Positions 1 to 5,672 of a stretch of DNA of 55,191 nt are shown here, in pieces. Positions within the stretch are counted from its first letter, which is position 1; each line of letters opens with the position of its first letter. The DNA lies in contig JAHEDI010000022.1 of NCBI GenBank assembly GCA_024641305.1, positions 1 through 55,191 of the forward strand. The letters are read 5' to 3'. Below the pieces are notes generated by a model, which worked only from the letters and a program-made list of their open reading frames with translations, did not search any database and was not told the origin of the DNA. A program made the translations under genes and the position numbers. This DNA comes from a bacterium (GTDB lineage: Bacteria; Actinomycetota; Acidimicrobiia; Spongiisociales; JAENVV01).

Positions 1-244
1 GATCCTTCCACGGTTCCGCAGCGTTGTACTCCCGGATCCGCTGCTCAAAGAACCCACAGTCATAGGCGCCTTGCGCCGCCGCCGTCCCCGAGTCGGCCTC
101 AACAAGCAACTCCCCTGTCATGGTCCATGCGTCAAGTGAGCCTTCTCCCAGAGTTCCAGCGTTGGCAGAGCCTGCAGTTATCACGAACGAGATCACAAGA
201 GCCGCAACGAGTCCCAGCCGGATCACGAACTTACCTCGAACCAT
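1..244 (-). CDS. Secreted protein, N-terminal part only (cut by window edge)
   Basis: The first 81 codons of a minus-strand gene are visible, starting with ATG at 244. Residues 1-29 form a clear signal peptide: a basic start (MVRGKFVIR), a hydrophobic core, and an AxA-type cleavage site (SANA, then GT). The mature part begins with an acidic, Ser/Thr-rich segment and contains one Cys in YDCGFFEQ. The start codon lies inside the end of the upstream lipoprotein gene (22 bp overlap), so the two are probably co-transcribed. I do not recognise the family. The rest of the gene lies left of the window. Confidence 0.7.
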   Translation of the reverse strand, partial: MVRGKFVIRLGLVAALVISFVITAGSANAGTLGEGSLDAWTMTGELLVEADSGTAAAQGAYDCGFFEQRIREYNAAEPWKD

Positions 245-954
245 ATCTGCCATCCAACCGCTGATGGGGAGACCACTGTGACAACCGGTCTACTGGCCCA
301 TCCGTCGGATATGGCATCCACAGCGTCGTCTTCAACTCTGCGGAGTTCAAAAGGCCCGCTAGAGGAAACGTACGAAATTGCGACTGCACCTCGGGGCAGG
401 TCCTCGACGAGTTCAGCAGGGAGTACTTCGGACGGCTCCACGATCTCATAGCTCGTGGCCAAATAGGGATCCGCCAAGTACACGATCCGCGAACCGCCCT
501 TGAACGCCGAATTGGCTCCTCTCGTGTACAGGCTCCTACCCTCGGACCCTTCGACCGTGTAGAGATTCACCAGTGGTGGATCCGGCCAAGTTGTCGCAAC
601 CCACGAGTCGAAGTCAATAATCGATTTCAGGGCCTCAATGGGGTCCGGGTTGTTGATGTCGAGGAAGGGGATGTTCTCACGACCCCCCAGGTTGGCTTCA
701 CCGACTTCGGCCACTACCTCGTCAATCAGCGCTTCAAGGGCAGCCGGACTTCCGACCGTTCCCGGGCTAGTGGTGGCGGTTGTTGTCAGCGAAGTCGTCG
801 TCGGAATCGTGGTGCTCGGCGAGGTCGTAGTCGTTGGGACGGCTGAGGTGACTGGAGCCCCGGCGACAGTCGTGGTGGTGATGGTCGTCGCGGCATTCGA
901 ACAAGACGTGATCAACAAAGCGGTGACGACAGTTGCACTCCCCTGCTTGATCAT
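223..954 (-). CDS. Thr-rich lipoprotein of unknown function
   Basis: 243 aa. The N-terminus has a short hydrophobic stretch ending in a lipobox (LITSC, Cys18), so the product should be a lipoprotein anchored to the outer face of the membrane. Residues about 20-66 are a low-complexity Thr/Ser/Pro linker, as in many actinobacterial lipoproteins. The globular part (about 67-243) contains no motif I recognise. Its 3' end overlaps the start of the next secreted-protein gene by 22 bp, so the two may act together. An AT-rich inverted repeat lies about 70-90 bp upstream of the start and may be its operator. Confidence 0.8.
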   Translation of the reverse strand: MIKQGSATVVTALLITSCSNAATTITTTTVAGAPVTSAVPTTTTSPSTTIPTTTSLTTTATTSPGTVGSPAALEALIDEVVAEVGEANLGGRENIPFLDINNPDPIEALKSIIDFDSWVATTWPDPPLVNLYTVEGSEGRSLYTRGANSAFKGGSRIVYLADPYLATSYEIVEPSEVLPAELVEDLPRGAVAISYVSSSGPFELRRVEDDAVDAISDGWASRPVVTVVSPSAVGWQIWFEVSS

Positions 955-1405: not shown

Positions 1406-1491
1406 CCGGGTGTTCCATCACACACTGATCCAGCCTCGTTTAAGAGGTCGACACAGCGCCCACCCCGTGTGAGGAGGACGCTGCGTTTAAC

Positions 1492-1797
1492 TCAGCTTCC
1501 GGTGCTCATCCATGAGTCATGGATTTCGAACGTGGGAATGACCCCTGTCATCATCCATGAATCGTGAACGCCGTCAGCTGCGAAGCTGACCGAACCCACC
1601 GGCACGTTCATCCACGAATCGTGAATCTCAGCCGCCGGGCCTCCGACGAGCAGCACAATTGCGACCACCGCGGCAACGATGACGGCAACCACACCCATAA
1701 CTGTGAGTAGAGGAACCACTGACGTTGGTGTCTGAGGAACAGTCACCCCGCCAACTTTTTCTTGGGGCCTCATGGTCCCTGGATCGACGGTAGACAT
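1492..1797 (-). CDS. Small membrane protein with three HDSWM motifs
   Basis: 101 aa. I chose ATG 1797 because AAAGGAGG lies at ideal distance upstream; a longer frame to 2004 has no such site. Residues 1-28 are polar and Pro/Thr-rich, 29-51 form one strong transmembrane helix (VVPLLTVMGV onward), and the rest is a short tail. The tail carries the pentapeptide HDSWM three times, at residues 59-63, 78-82 and 93-97, twice as EIHDSWM and once as VHDSWM, each followed by a short hydrophobic stretch. Repeated His/Asp/Met in a probably extracytoplasmic tail could bind metal or act as a recognition peptide; this is speculation. I know no described family with this motif. Confidence 0.75.
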   Translation of the reverse strand: MSTVDPGTMRPQEKVGGVTVPQTPTSVVPLLTVMGVVAVIVAAVVAIVLLVGGPAAEIHDSWMNVPVGSVSFAADGVHDSWMMTGVIPTFEIHDSWMSTGS

Positions 1798-1961
1798 GGG
1801 AACCTCCTTTCGGAGCGAAGAGACTTTCGTCCCAGCCGCTCCAACTATCCCTCTGGCGTCATCACGCCAGTTGAACCGTCTCCATACACCAATGTCTCGC
1901 TTCCCCGCCGAACACAACAGAGCAAAAGGACCCCACCCGTGCAAAACCCTGCCCGCTCGAA

Positions 1962-2012
1962 GGTCGAGTGTGCATCCAGATTCGATATGAGCACACGTAT
2001 GCACACTCGACC
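1962..2012. terminator. Perfect 14-bp inverted repeat downstream of ABC operon
   Basis: GGTCGAGTGTGCAT (1962-1975) is the exact inverse of 1999-2012, with a 23-nt loop. Immediately beside it is a second hairpin, CCTGCG (2012-2017) with CGCAGG (2025-2030). Both follow the stop of the ABC permease (2044, minus strand) and precede the small membrane protein. No T-run is visible, so this may be a Rho-independent-like stem or a mobile-repeat relic. Confidence 0.45.
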
Positions 2013-2043: not shown

Positions 2044-2787
2044 TCAGGAGTGTTCGCGAAGGGTGAACGTCGCCGCGCCCAGGATCAGGATTCCATAGAT
2101 CGGGAGAGCCATGACTGCACCAAGGTTGGAGGACAGGCTGGTGCCTGCCACCAAGTCCTGGAGAACCTGGTTGGCGTAGTACATCGGAGAAACCCGGCTA
2201 ATCACCTGTGCCCAGCCGGGCAAGGCGTCGACCGGGACCATCATCCCCGAAAACAGGAAGCTAGGGATGATGACCAGCGGAATGAAGGGAATGACCTGGC
2301 CTTCGGTTTGAGCAACATTGGAGACGAGAATCCCCAACGACAGGGAGATAACGGCCAGCAACCAAAGGACGATGAATGACTCGGCCAGACGCTGGAAGTC
2401 ATAGCCAAGGTTGAACAAGAGCTGAAGAGCAACGAGCACCATCGTCGAAACCGCCGTGGCGAGGGCGGTGTAGCCCAATAGGTAGCCGCCCACGATCTCG
2501 AACTGGCGGTAGCCATTCACAAACATTCGCTCGAGCGTTTGGGCGACTCGTTCTCGGACCAAAACGATGGCGGTCAGAATGAAGGTTGCGAAGTGGACGA
2601 TATATGCGCCAAAAGGCACCACAAACCGTTCCTGACCGGCGGCCGGGATTGACGTGGCATCGAAAAGTGTCTTCACAAAGAACACCAGCAACAACGGGGC
2701 CGCCACCACCAGAATCATAAAACGGCGATCTCGTCGAATCTGCTTGAGCACCCGCCGGGCCACGGCTCTGGTTCTACTTGGCCCCAT
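2044..2787 (-). CDS. ABC-2 type transporter permease
   Basis: 247 aa, the usual length for a DrrB/ABC-2 permease. A cytoplasmic basic N-terminus is followed by six predicted membrane segments: near residues 25-43, 55-78, 105-127, 138-160, 168-190 and 220-240. There is the typical loop after the fifth segment (PVDALPGWAQVISRVSPMYYANQ), characteristic of ABC-2 exporters. The start (GGGAGG eight bases upstream) lies 14 bp inside the ATPase gene, so the pair is translationally coupled and forms one exporter. The substrate cannot be read from sequence; relatives export drugs, lipids or peptides. Confidence 0.88.
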   Translation of the reverse strand: MGPSRTRAVARRVLKQIRRDRRFMILVVAAPLLLVFFVKTLFDATSIPAAGQERFVVPFGAYIVHFATFILTAIVLVRERVAQTLERMFVNGYRQFEIVGGYLLGYTALATAVSTMVLVALQLLFNLGYDFQRLAESFIVLWLLAVISLSLGILVSNVAQTEGQVIPFIPLVIIPSFLFSGMMVPVDALPGWAQVISRVSPMYYANQVLQDLVAGTSLSSNLGAVMALPIYGILILGAATFTLREHS

Positions 2788-3640
2788 GATCGCCCTCCCT
2801 GCCGATCATGGACAGCACGACATCTTCGAGGGTCGGCTCTTTAACTTCGATCCGGGTGACCCTCGGGTCGAGACCGAAATTGTGCAGGAGGCCCGGCAGG
2901 TCATCAGATAGAGATCGCAGCGCTTGCTCAACCACGTCCCCACCGCGGTGGACTCGCACGGTCGCTCCGCCTGTCGAGAACAGCTCGGACGGGGTGGCGT
3001 TGGCGAGAACTGTGCCGGAGCGGATGATCGCCACCCGGTCACAGTGGACCACCTCATCCATCTGATGGGTACTCACCACGAGCGTCACGCCCGACTCGGC
3101 GAGTCGCCTGAACCGTTGCCAGAACGTGTGGCGCAACTCCGGGTCGACGCCAGCGGTGGGTTCGTCAAGGAATAGCATCTGCGGTTCGTGGACCAGGGTG
3201 GCGGCCAGGGAAGCCCTCTGCCGCTGGCCTCCCGATAGCGCTCGAATCTGCCGGTCTGCCTGATCTCGCAAGTCGACGAATTCGAGCACGGAGCGAGCTT
3301 TCTGCTCAACACTTTCCGACATGTGGCCGCGTCCGAAGAATGTGACATTCTCAAGGACGGTGAGGTCCTCGTACAGGACGGGTGCCTGTGGCATGTATCC
3401 GATCGTCGAACGGACCTGACGCTTGTGGGCGAACGGATCAACACCAAGAACTCGAATCTCGCCCGAATCGGGCCGCAAAGCACCAACGAGCATGCGTATC
3501 AGCGTTGTCTTGCCTGCCCCATTTGCCCCCACCAGTCCAACAATTGAGCCTTTGGGGACTTCGAGATCGACGCCGGAAAGTGCCACGACCTGGCCGTAGG
3601 CCTTGGAGATTGACGAAACTGAGATCGCTTGGTCGGCCAT
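2774..3640 (-). CDS. ABC transporter ATP-binding protein
   Basis: 288 aa. All nucleotide-binding motifs are present: Walker A GANGAGKTT (38-46), Q-loop MPQAPV (about 83-88), signature LSGGQ (135-139), Walker B MLFLDEP (155-161) and H-loop STHQMDE. The C-terminal 60 residues form the extension seen in DrrA-type exporters. It powers the permease encoded 14 bp overlapping downstream. Its ATG shares one base with the stop of the preceding AAA-type gene (TGATG), so the three are probably one operon. Confidence 0.93.
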   Translation of the reverse strand: MADQAISVSSISKAYGQVVALSGVDLEVPKGSIVGLVGANGAGKTTLIRMLVGALRPDSGEIRVLGVDPFAHKRQVRSTIGYMPQAPVLYEDLTVLENVTFFGRGHMSESVEQKARSVLEFVDLRDQADRQIRALSGGQRQRASLAATLVHEPQMLFLDEPTAGVDPELRHTFWQRFRRLAESGVTLVVSTHQMDEVVHCDRVAIIRSGTVLANATPSELFSTGGATVRVHRGGDVVEQALRSLSDDLPGLLHNFGLDPRVTRIEVKEPTLEDVVLSMIGREGDHGAK

Positions 3641-4299
3641 CAGGTCGACGATGACTCAAGCGCCCGGCAGCAGCCGGGGAGCGTGGCTCGGATAGCCGCC
3701 AACGCGACAGCCGACTTCGAGCTGAACTCGATGGCTGGCGGGACGAACACCCGTCGGGGATGGTCGGACCACGCCGAAGTAATCAACCGGTCGATTTCTC
3801 TCGCCCTCCCGACGGTCTCGGAGCGGATACGATCCTGATGGTACCCCTCATCCAAGGGTGGCGTCTGCAGATGGATGACAGCCATGTAACGGGCTAGCTC
3901 CTCAGCACTCGTCGAGCCCATGGCCTCCCAGAACGATTCCGCCGATCCTGGCCAGTAGGCCCGTCCGTCGATGGTCCCACGGTCACAAAGCGCTACCCCG
4001 ACCCGCCCCTCTTCAACGACGAGTGCTTCGAGTTGGCGCTGAACGGCAAAGATGGCTCGCTGCGAAGCATGCAACCCGGCCTCAGAGTCATGCCGGGGAA
4101 ATCCGCCGCCGAAGACAACCGTGGCCGCCTCAGGGAGAATCGCCACATGGCGGCAAAATGTGTGAGCGGCTAGTTCCAGGACGGCGGTCTTACCGGCTCC
4201 AGGACCACCCGTGACCACCACCAACTGTGCTTCGTGGGAGGGTTCGGGACAGCGACAGGGCCGTGATCCAACTCGAAGTGTCGGGAACTCACCGTTCAT
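3640..4299 (-). CDS. AAA-type P-loop NTPase (AAA_28-like)
   Basis: 219 aa. The P-loop GGPGAGKT is at residues 31-38, followed by features of the AAA_28 / nucleotide-kinase-like group: an ILPEAATVVFGGGFPR segment, a CDRGTIDG motif (catalytic Asp-Arg) and an HLQTPP motif. Cys residues before the P-loop (CRCPEPSHE) are unusual and could bind metal. Members of this group often look like small-molecule kinases but are mostly uncharacterised. It is first in the operon with the ABC exporter (TGATG junction) and divergent from the OLD-like nuclease, with 122 bp between the two starts. Confidence 0.75.
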   Translation of the reverse strand: MNGEFPTLRVGSRPCRCPEPSHEAQLVVVTGGPGAGKTAVLELAAHTFCRHVAILPEAATVVFGGGFPRHDSEAGLHASQRAIFAVQRQLEALVVEEGRVGVALCDRGTIDGRAYWPGSAESFWEAMGSTSAEELARYMAVIHLQTPPLDEGYHQDRIRSETVGRAREIDRLITSAWSDHPRRVFVPPAIEFSSKSAVALAAIRATLPGCCRALESSST

Positions 4300-4421
4300 G
4301 TCTGCCGCTCTCTTTCTTCTATAGGTCTAGCTCTTTTTGGCGCCAATGCAGCGAGTCCAGCACGCGGTCTTTCTTGAACAGACAGGAACTACTTCACAAG
4401 CATCTGCAACAATGCGCACTC

Positions 4422-5672
4422 ATGGAACCGGGTCTCGACGCAAGTAACTTCCCGGGGTTGATCCGGGTGGACATCGACGGCTACCGGTCGATCCGCAACG
4501 CCTCGTTTCGCCCCGGTCGGCTCTCTGCCTTGGTCGGCGAATCGAGTGCCGGCAAATCAAACGTACTTGAAGCGATTCGGGCAGTCCTCGATCCAACCGC
4601 CCCGCCCCTGGTGCCAGGCGAGATTGCCCGAGACGGGGACGGAACCATCCGGATTAACGCCGAGTTCGCAGACGGATCATCGTCCTTCATCGCCGGCCTG
4701 CCTCAGCATCGAGGCCACTCAGGCGACGTAATGTCGCACACACCACTGTTTCTTCCGGCCGATTTACGATCGAGCACGCTCGTCGCCAGGTCGGCCAACG
4801 ATTCCCCTCCCCACCATCGAGCCGTCGATATCCTCCAGGAAGCCCTGGCGGGACGAGGAATCGACGGGCAACCCAACCACCATCACCAGGGAGCTACCGC
4901 GGCAGCCCACGGCCTCGTCGACGGTCTCGAAGCCTGCCTAACGGCCAACGTCACGGGAATGATCCTGCTTATCGAGGAGCCAGAACTGTTCCTTCCCCCG
5001 CAGATTCAGCGATACCTCTACCGACTCCTGCACCAACTGTCCGAGGCCGACAATCAGGTCTTCTACTCCACCCACTCGCCCTCGTTTCTCAATGTTGCCC
5101 GGCTCGACGAACTGGTGATGATCGAGCACCGGCCAGGCGAGGGCACCCGGCTGTTCCAGCCTGAACCCCTCCCTGCCGATCAGGAATTCGTGGCCGCTTC
5201 CGAGTTCGACGCATCTCGGGGAGAGCTATTCCTCGCTCGGGCGGCCGTGCTGGTCGAAGGGCTGACCGAAAAGCTGGCTCTTCCCTTCGTGTTTCGGGCG
5301 ATGGGCCATGACGCCGACCGGGAGCGGATCTCGATCGTGGAATGCGGTGGCAAGTCGAACATCGTGCTCGCCGCCCGGATTGCCAAAGCCGTAGGGGTCC
5401 CGTTCATTGCACTCCATGATCGTGACGCTCCAGCGGGCAAACGGCCGAATGAGGGCCAGGCCTACTTGAACAAGTTGATCGGTGAGATCGCCGGCGAGGA
5501 TGGCAGGGTCGAAATGATTCCTGATTTCGAAGGCATCTCCGGTTTGCGAGGGCATCGCCACAAGCCCGAACGCGCCTGGGAACGCTTCTCCAAGCTGACC
5601 GCCGATGAAATCCCTGCTCCGCTCGCTCACACCGTCGAACGTGCCGTGAAACTAGCGAGCCGCTCGTCCTAG
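4422..5672 (+). CDS. Compact OLD-family ATPase/TOPRIM nuclease
   Basis: 416 aa from ATG 4422; the frame stays open upstream but that part looks non-coding. An SMC/RecF-type ATPase half comes first: Walker A GESSAGKS (39-46), Walker B ILLIEEPE (181-188) and H-loop STHSP (216-220). A C-terminal TOPRIM domain has VEGLTE (279-284) and HDRDA (332-336), which supply the acidic metal ligands. OLD nucleases cut DNA and some act in phage defence or DNA repair. It is shorter than typical OLD proteins because the ATPase insert between the Walker motifs is only about 135 residues. No UvrD/GajB-like helicase is beside it, so it is a solo (class 1) type. The start has only a weak ribosome binding site. Confidence 0.8.
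   Translation: MEPGLDASNFPGLIRVDIDGYRSIRNASFRPGRLSALVGESSAGKSNVLEAIRAVLDPTAPPLVPGEIARDGDGTIRINAEFADGSSSFIAGLPQHRGHSGDVMSHTPLFLPADLRSSTLVARSANDSPPHHRAVDILQEALAGRGIDGQPNHHHQGATAAAHGLVDGLEACLTANVTGMILLIEEPELFLPPQIQRYLYRLLHQLSEADNQVFYSTHSPSFLNVARLDELVMIEHRPGEGTRLFQPEPLPADQEFVAASEFDASRGELFLARAAVLVEGLTEKLALPFVFRAMGHDADRERISIVECGGKSNIVLAARIAKAVGVPFIALHDRDAPAGKRPNEGQAYLNKLIGEIAGEDGRVEMIPDFEGISGLRGHRHKPERAWERFSKLTADEIPAPLAHTVERAVKLASRSS

What the first reader, a model, noticed from the sequence alone, without database searches (positions are those of the whole stretch)
1492..1797. Single-TM peptide with three HDSWM motifs
The 101-aa product has a strong ribosome binding site, one membrane helix, and a tail with HDSWM three times, spaced 19 and 15 residues. 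His and Met recur in each unit, so metal binding, heme coordination or docking of a partner are possible. The motif is not part of any family I know.
Basis: partly seen in the sequence, partly recalled or inferred. Interest (0 to 1): 0.62.

Follow-up and report, generated by a model that had tools for sequence, protein, structure and literature searches.

The report
Rare small membrane protein, repeated tail
A short, real membrane protein found so far only in two small groups of related uncultured bacteria carries a repeated five-letter motif on a tail that probably sits outside the cell membrane; it most likely docks onto a partner that is still unknown.

Summary
Window 1492-1797 (minus) encodes a 101-aa protein with a strong ribosome-binding site, one membrane helix (model residues 30-51) and HDSWM at residues 59, 78 and 93. 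It is a real gene. Five other genomes of the same order carry intact homologues (82 aa, two units each): one in the same genus, four in another family. The tail changes mostly at silent sites (G029/G016: dN 0.08, dS 1.7), and all six genes have a hairpin just past the stop. No other homologue turned up among 138 order genomes, 395 class genomes, one genome each of 84,980 species (by exact pattern), or in viral, phage and plasmid collections. No Pfam, NCBIfam or PHROGs family fits. The gene is accessory: it is missing at matching sites in relatives. Over 13 units D, S and W are invariant, H is present in 12 and M in 10, so "His and Met in each unit" is true only of the window's protein; that weakens the metal idea. 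Charge places the tail outside. I think it is a membrane-anchored docking or regulatory miniprotein presenting two or three DSW linear motifs. The partner is unknown and no neighbour is shared between the two groups, so the mechanism is inference. Modest interest.

The parts
1492..1797 (-). CDS of the 101-aa single-TM protein (ATG at 1797, TGA at 1492)
   Evidence: intact homologues in five genomes; tail under purifying selection
1803..1810 (-). Shine-Dalgarno AAAGGAGG, 5 nt before the ATG
   Evidence: sequence; AAGGAGG kept at the same place in all six homologues
1645..1710 (-). membrane helix, residues 30-51
   Evidence: AlphaFold2 helix 30-51; highest-scoring 21-aa hydropathy window is 31-51
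1609..1623 (-). HDSWM unit 1 (residues 59-63), the unit kept intact in all six homologues
1552..1566 (-). HDSWM unit 2 (residues 78-82), extra unit seen only in this genome
1507..1521 (-). HDSWM unit 3 (residues 93-97), corresponds to the last unit of the two-unit homologues
1451..1486 (-). hairpin just after the stop, probable terminator (weak T run)
   Evidence: z -4.7; hairpins at the same place in the other five
1853..1870 (-). CTGGCGT-GATG-ACGCCAG inverted repeat in the 5' region; its core GGCG[CT]GAT is shared upstream of all six genes; possible regulatory element
   Evidence: sequence and upstream alignment; function not tested

Best explanation
A solitary, lineage-restricted gene makes a small membrane protein with one helix, its N-terminus inside the cell and its C-terminus outside. 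The disordered, acidic outer tail presents two (in this genome three) copies of a short linear motif, [H]DSW[M/hydrophobic]. The protein most likely works as a membrane-anchored docking or regulatory miniprotein: the DSW units bind, with added avidity, to one extracytoplasmic or membrane partner such as a sensor, transporter or envelope enzyme. Shown: the gene is real and conserved, one helix is predicted, the motif core is DSW, spacers vary, the tail is acidic. Inferred: orientation (positive-inside rule), docking, multivalency. Unknown: the partner and the signal.
For: Homologues in 6 of 138 genomes of the order, own genome included, at E <= 1.2e-26. Motif core invariant in 13 of 13 units while spacings are 15, 16 or 19 residues, as expected of independent linear motifs rather than of one folded site. 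The tail is more constrained than N-terminus plus helix: G029/G016 tail dN 0.08, dS 1.70; residues 1-53 dN 0.29, dS 0.98; 12 silent against 4 replacement codons in the tail, binomial P 4.5e-5. The tail lacks K/R in 5 of 6 (one R in G004) and has 3-6 acidic residues. AlphaFold2 models: a confident helix in both; tail of low confidence, no strands, one 4-residue turn of helix in the G029 model (six-row alignments). Hairpins right after the stop point to a single-gene transcript.
Against: No partner found. No neighbour is shared between the two groups. The neighbouring beta-propeller of the four g6 carriers also exists in G036, where the peptide gene is missing from the matching site. No expression, localisation or interaction data. 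A real fold of the tail could be missed with only six sequences. Hairpin support is uneven: G016 z is only -1.9 and most lack a strong T run.
Confidence: 0.42

Rival explanations
1. The tail is cleaved from the membrane helix and released: a multi-unit precursor of a secreted signal or antimicrobial peptide, each unit being a core.
For: Short secreted-type protein with tandem near-identical units and strong translation start. GPAA before the first unit of the window could be a signal-peptidase site (inspection).
Against: The residues before unit 1 are not kept as a cleavage site: PAA/E in the window, PVT/E in G004, EPA/E in g6 (inspection). The helix is long, 22-28 residues in the models. The tail has no K/R between units except one R in G004, so no dibasic or trypsin-like processing. 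No modifying or export gene pairs with it in both groups; the ABC-2 genes near the two groups differ.
Confidence: 0.16
2. The tail binds a metal (Cu(I), Ag(I), Zn) or heme through the His, Asp, Trp and Met of the units.
For: H and M in all three units of the window; unit 1 keeps HDSWM in six of six genomes. Short His/Met motifs MX2H and HX2M of SilE bind silver (passages seen in PMC10080550).
Against: Met replaced by V, L, V in 3 of 13 units, His by Arg in 1 of 13. Spacing is HX3M, not HX2M. No Cys in any of the six. The neighbours scanned include no metal-resistance gene. An octaheme-type cytochrome whose N-terminus resembles the tail co-occurs in only 1 of 6 carriers.
Confidence: 0.14
3. Membrane-active toxin-like or stress peptide: the helix is what matters and the tail only tunes it.
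For: Very hydrophobic helix, solitary accessory gene, patchy presence.
Against: The N-terminus plus helix is less conserved than the tail. Rfam finds nothing at gathering scores in the six loci scanned, so no known antisense antitoxin RNA; no dedicated antitoxin search was made.
Confidence: 0.1
4. The repeats are DNA operators: HDSW codons make the near-palindrome CAYGA-N-TCRTG and the protein motif is a by-product.
For: All three window units, and 9 of 13 units over six genomes, fit the palindrome.
Against: 4 of 13 units break it, three through a silent TCC serine codon and one through H to R, while DSW is kept in 13 of 13; silent change dominates in the tail.
Confidence: 0.03

Closest known systems
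MgrB-type small bitopic membrane regulators (PhoQ inhibitor of enterobacteria)
   Same: Short single-TM protein, N-terminus inside, with a tail probably outside. For MgrB (47 aa, cytoplasmic N-terminus, direct PhoQ interaction) I read the abstract and the localisation section of PMC2789325.
   Different: No sequence relation seen; different phylum; tail with repeated DSW units and no Cys; partner unknown.
SilE-type periplasmic His/Met silver-binding proteins
   Same: Short His/Met motifs repeated in an extracytoplasmic chain (abstract and passages of PMC10080550).
   Different: HX3M rather than MX2H/HX2M; Met and His not kept in every unit; membrane-anchored; no metal genes among the neighbours scanned.
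NCBIfam CU044_5270 family (NF038083)
   Same: Weak hit in 5 of 6 members, best E 0.0094; in the window protein over residues 23-56, the helix region.
   Different: 12.9 bits for the window protein against a cut-off of 100; no tail; not a member.

Membership tests
Any Pfam, NCBIfam or PHROGs family | score above the family cut-off (PHROGs: convincing E-value) | tested here: not met
   best Pfam DUF5305 E 0.32 (window protein only); best NCBIfam E 0.0094 and PHROGs E 0.076 among the six members
MgrB-like small membrane regulator (function class) | single TM with conserved non-cytoplasmic tail | tested here: met
   one helix, conserved acidic tail with almost no K/R; orientation is inference from charge
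MgrB-like small membrane regulator (function class) | direct binding and control of a sensor or other membrane partner | not testable with these tools
   needs interaction experiments
MgrB protein family itself | sequence homology | tested here: not met
   no MgrB model among the Pfam or NCBIfam hits
SilE-type metal-binding protein | HX2M / MX2H motifs | tested here: not met
   HX3M spacing, and Met absent from 3 of 13 units
SilE-type metal-binding protein | metal binding | not testable with these tools
   needs a binding assay
Multi-unit secreted peptide precursor | conserved cleavage sites before or between units | tested here: not met
   site before unit 1 varies (inspection); no K/R between units except one R in G004
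Phage- or plasmid-borne gene | homologues in phage, viral or plasmid records | tested here: not met
   none

The most novel reading that the evidence does not exclude
A previously undescribed family of small membrane-anchored proteins, confined to a few uncultured lineages of one bacterial order, that signals or scaffolds outside the cell through a multivalent DSW linear motif recognised by an as yet unknown receptor, with unit number changing between species (two ancestral, three in this genome).
Probability: 0.35. Interest if true: 0.5.

Novelty: new variant of a known kind. Interest (0 to 1): 0.3.

Why it matters
It moves one raw-sequence oddity from a possible chance ORF to a conserved small-protein family whose most constrained part is the repeated tail motif. 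Small membrane proteins are under-annotated, and one with a short invariant core (DSW) in two or three copies is an easy bait for finding the partner. Its narrow range and unknown partner limit the wider importance.

Tried and rejected
Operator or DNA palindrome: rejected because silent codon changes break the palindrome while DSW stays. Operon with the upstream ABC-2 genes (window 2044-3640): not supported. There is a gap of about 250 nt holding an inverted-repeat element, and G001 keeps the ABC genes (3371 nt aligned at 92.5%) without the peptide. Partner beta-propeller next to the gene in the four g6 carriers: G036 has the propeller but not the peptide at the matching site, and the best propeller hits in the g1 genomes that have one are only 28-30% identical. 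Multiheme cytochrome whose N-terminus (helix then AEADDPWAHVP, L039) resembles the tail: homologue in 1 of 6 carriers (G009), so taken as chance. Weak hits: 11 loci (L008, L009, L016, L017, L038-L044; the last seven are all the weak hits) were looked at and none carries a TM plus DSW tail; most of the weak hits (58 of 99 genomes at E <= 1) were not looked at one by one. The extra pattern hit in the own genome (C61, L076) lies in a 61-aa frame without a membrane helix. The ten non-family genomes: three in-frame hits were translated and show no such protein; the other seven are out of frame or hit a stop, by reading the matched DNA. Rfam RNAs: none. Solved structures: best E 0.051, over the helix region. 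Consensus sigma-70 promoter scan of 1300-2200: none found. Literature: 'HDSWM' occurs in one paper of the held PMC library, on emergency mental health (search listing only); a search with four general terms found nothing; subscription journals are not covered.

Full report
OBSERVATION. The minus strand of window 1492-1797 encodes MSTVDPG...HDSWMSTGS, 101 aa, behind AAAGGAGG with 5 nt to the ATG. HDSWM begins at residues 59, 78 and 93, spacings 19 and 15, and the single hydrophobic stretch is residues 30-51. The mechanical ORF list extends the frame upstream to 2004, but the SD and the homologues support the ATG at 1797.

IS IT A GENE. The window is contig 66 of a 3.42 Mb genome (G000). In 99 genomes (own and relatives) and then 138 held genomes of the order, six carriers stand out, at E <= 1.2e-26 with a profile of the six sequences: G000 and G004 (same genus) and G009, G016, G023, G029 (one genus of another family). 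A seventh hit, G132, has E 3e-4 and covers profile positions 5-57, the N-terminal and helix part. The homologues are 82 aa with two units: E[IV]HDSWM[NH].PGAVQTVEIHDSW[MVL]xG in the four, and EIHDSWMNVPVAQVAIVRDSWMNVGG in G004. The TGA reported inside the G004 match is its normal stop. Contig lengths tie G029 to MAG Ww199, G023 to Ww198 and G004 to an Acidimicrobiia MAG LH_M20 (my inference).

RANGE. The same six were the only strong hits in 395 genomes of the class (13 genomes at E <= 0.01, seven of them weak). In 396 genomes of the phylum, a draw that held G000, only G000 matched at E <= 1e-4. An exact scan of the genome collection (one genome for each of 84,980 species) for E[IV]HDSWM with a TCN serine gave 18 stretches, of which 3 are this family and 15 are unrelated frames. 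Viral contigs, phages and plasmids gave none. A two-motif pattern in 395 class genomes hit 15 genomes: five carriers and ten chance hits (and reading). Metagenomes were not scanned.

SELECTION. Nei-Gojobori estimates: tail (residues 54-82) G029/G016 dN 0.08, dS 1.70; G016/G023 dN 0.05, dS 0.41; G029/G009 dN 0.015, dS 0.18. Residues 1-53 of G029/G016: dN 0.29, dS 0.98; of G029/G009: dN 0.094, dS 0.094, so that pair shows no constraint outside the tail. The tail excess of silent change has binomial P 4.5e-5 (G029/G016), 0.012 (G016/G023) and 0.053 (G029/G009, few changes); for the G000/G004 pair P is 0.033 over residues 54-67 and 0.061 over residues 1-67. The tail is thus the most constrained part.

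WHAT IS CONSERVED. Over all 13 units of six genomes: D, S, W 13/13; H 12/13 (R in G004 unit 2); M 10/13 (V, L, V in the last unit of G029, G016, G009). Unit 1 is HDSWM in 6/6. The window's middle unit looks like an addition to a two-unit form that the other five share. HDSW codons tend to form the palindrome CAYGANTCRTG; 9 of 13 units fit, but silent TCC codons or H to R break it in 4, so selection acts on protein.

ANATOMY AND CONTEXT. Charge: C-terminal side K+R 0 in five and 1 in G004, D+E 3-6, hence tail outside by the positive-inside rule (established knowledge). AlphaFold2 gives one helix and a low-confidence tail (window protein; G029 protein, which also shows a four-residue helical turn). 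A hairpin starts 3-20 nt after the stop in all six, with shuffling z-scores -4.7, -4.6 (window and G004) and -2.7, -1.9, -4.2, -4.4 (G029, G016, G023, G009; these four were refolded with 75 nt because 57 nt cut the hairpin, where z was 0.3, -0.4, -2.8, -0.4). The T runs are weak. Neighbours: in the window ABC-2 permease and ATPase, an AAA_28 protein and a Thr-rich lipoprotein-like protein without Pfam hit; in g6 an enoyl-CoA hydratase, KAS III, a different ABC-2 pair and a PQQ-type propeller with an N-terminal hydrophobic stretch; in G004 a cyclase/AAA protein. Nothing is shared between the groups; within g1 the Thr-rich protein occurs in G000 and G004 only (2 of 7 f1 genomes). G001 has the ABC genes but not the peptide; G036 has KAS III followed by the propeller without peptide and hydratase between them (G036 is 56% complete but this stretch is continuous). 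So the gene comes and goes.

INTERPRETATION. Short invariant core, variable spacers, no predicted fold, tail outside: the pattern of a linear docking motif on a membrane anchor. I put 0.42 on that. A released peptide precursor (0.16), metal binding (0.14), membrane-active peptide (0.10) and DNA element (0.03) are less likely; the rest is something not considered. MgrB is a working analogue, not a relative (PMC2789325: abstract and localisation section read). SilE-type HX2M/MX2H motifs differ in spacing (PMC10080550: passages read).

VERDICT. Real, conserved, narrow in range, without a known family; mechanism open. Interest 0.3.

Noticed in passing
window 1963-2011: Inverted-repeat element GTCGAGTGTGC-N27-GCACACTCGAC between the ABC permease and the peptide gene; a related copy follows the permease in G001 and another follows the peptide gene in G004. 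Exact pattern at 2 places in the own genome.
   Followed up: partly
window 1853-1870: CTGGCGT-GATG-ACGCCAG inverted repeat; the core GGCG[CT]GAT recurs upstream of all six homologues; could be a regulatory site or part of a promoter.
   Followed up: no
window 3640-5672: Divergent pair: AAA_28 ATPase (3640-4299 minus) and OLD-like ATPase with TOPRIM domain (4227-5672 plus, PF20469 E 7.5e-17), in a stretch kept in G001 up to 5413; possible DNA-processing or defence pair.
   Followed up: partly
window 223-954: Thr-rich secreted or lipoprotein-like protein (243 aa, no Pfam hit) found among 7 f1 genomes only in G000 and G004, the two that also carry the peptide; not tested in the g6 carriers.
   Followed up: partly
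L039 208-1671: Multiheme cytochrome (Cytochrome_cB, PF11783 E 4e-58) whose helix is followed by AEADDPWAHVP, resembling AEIHDSWMHVP; probably chance.
   Followed up: yes
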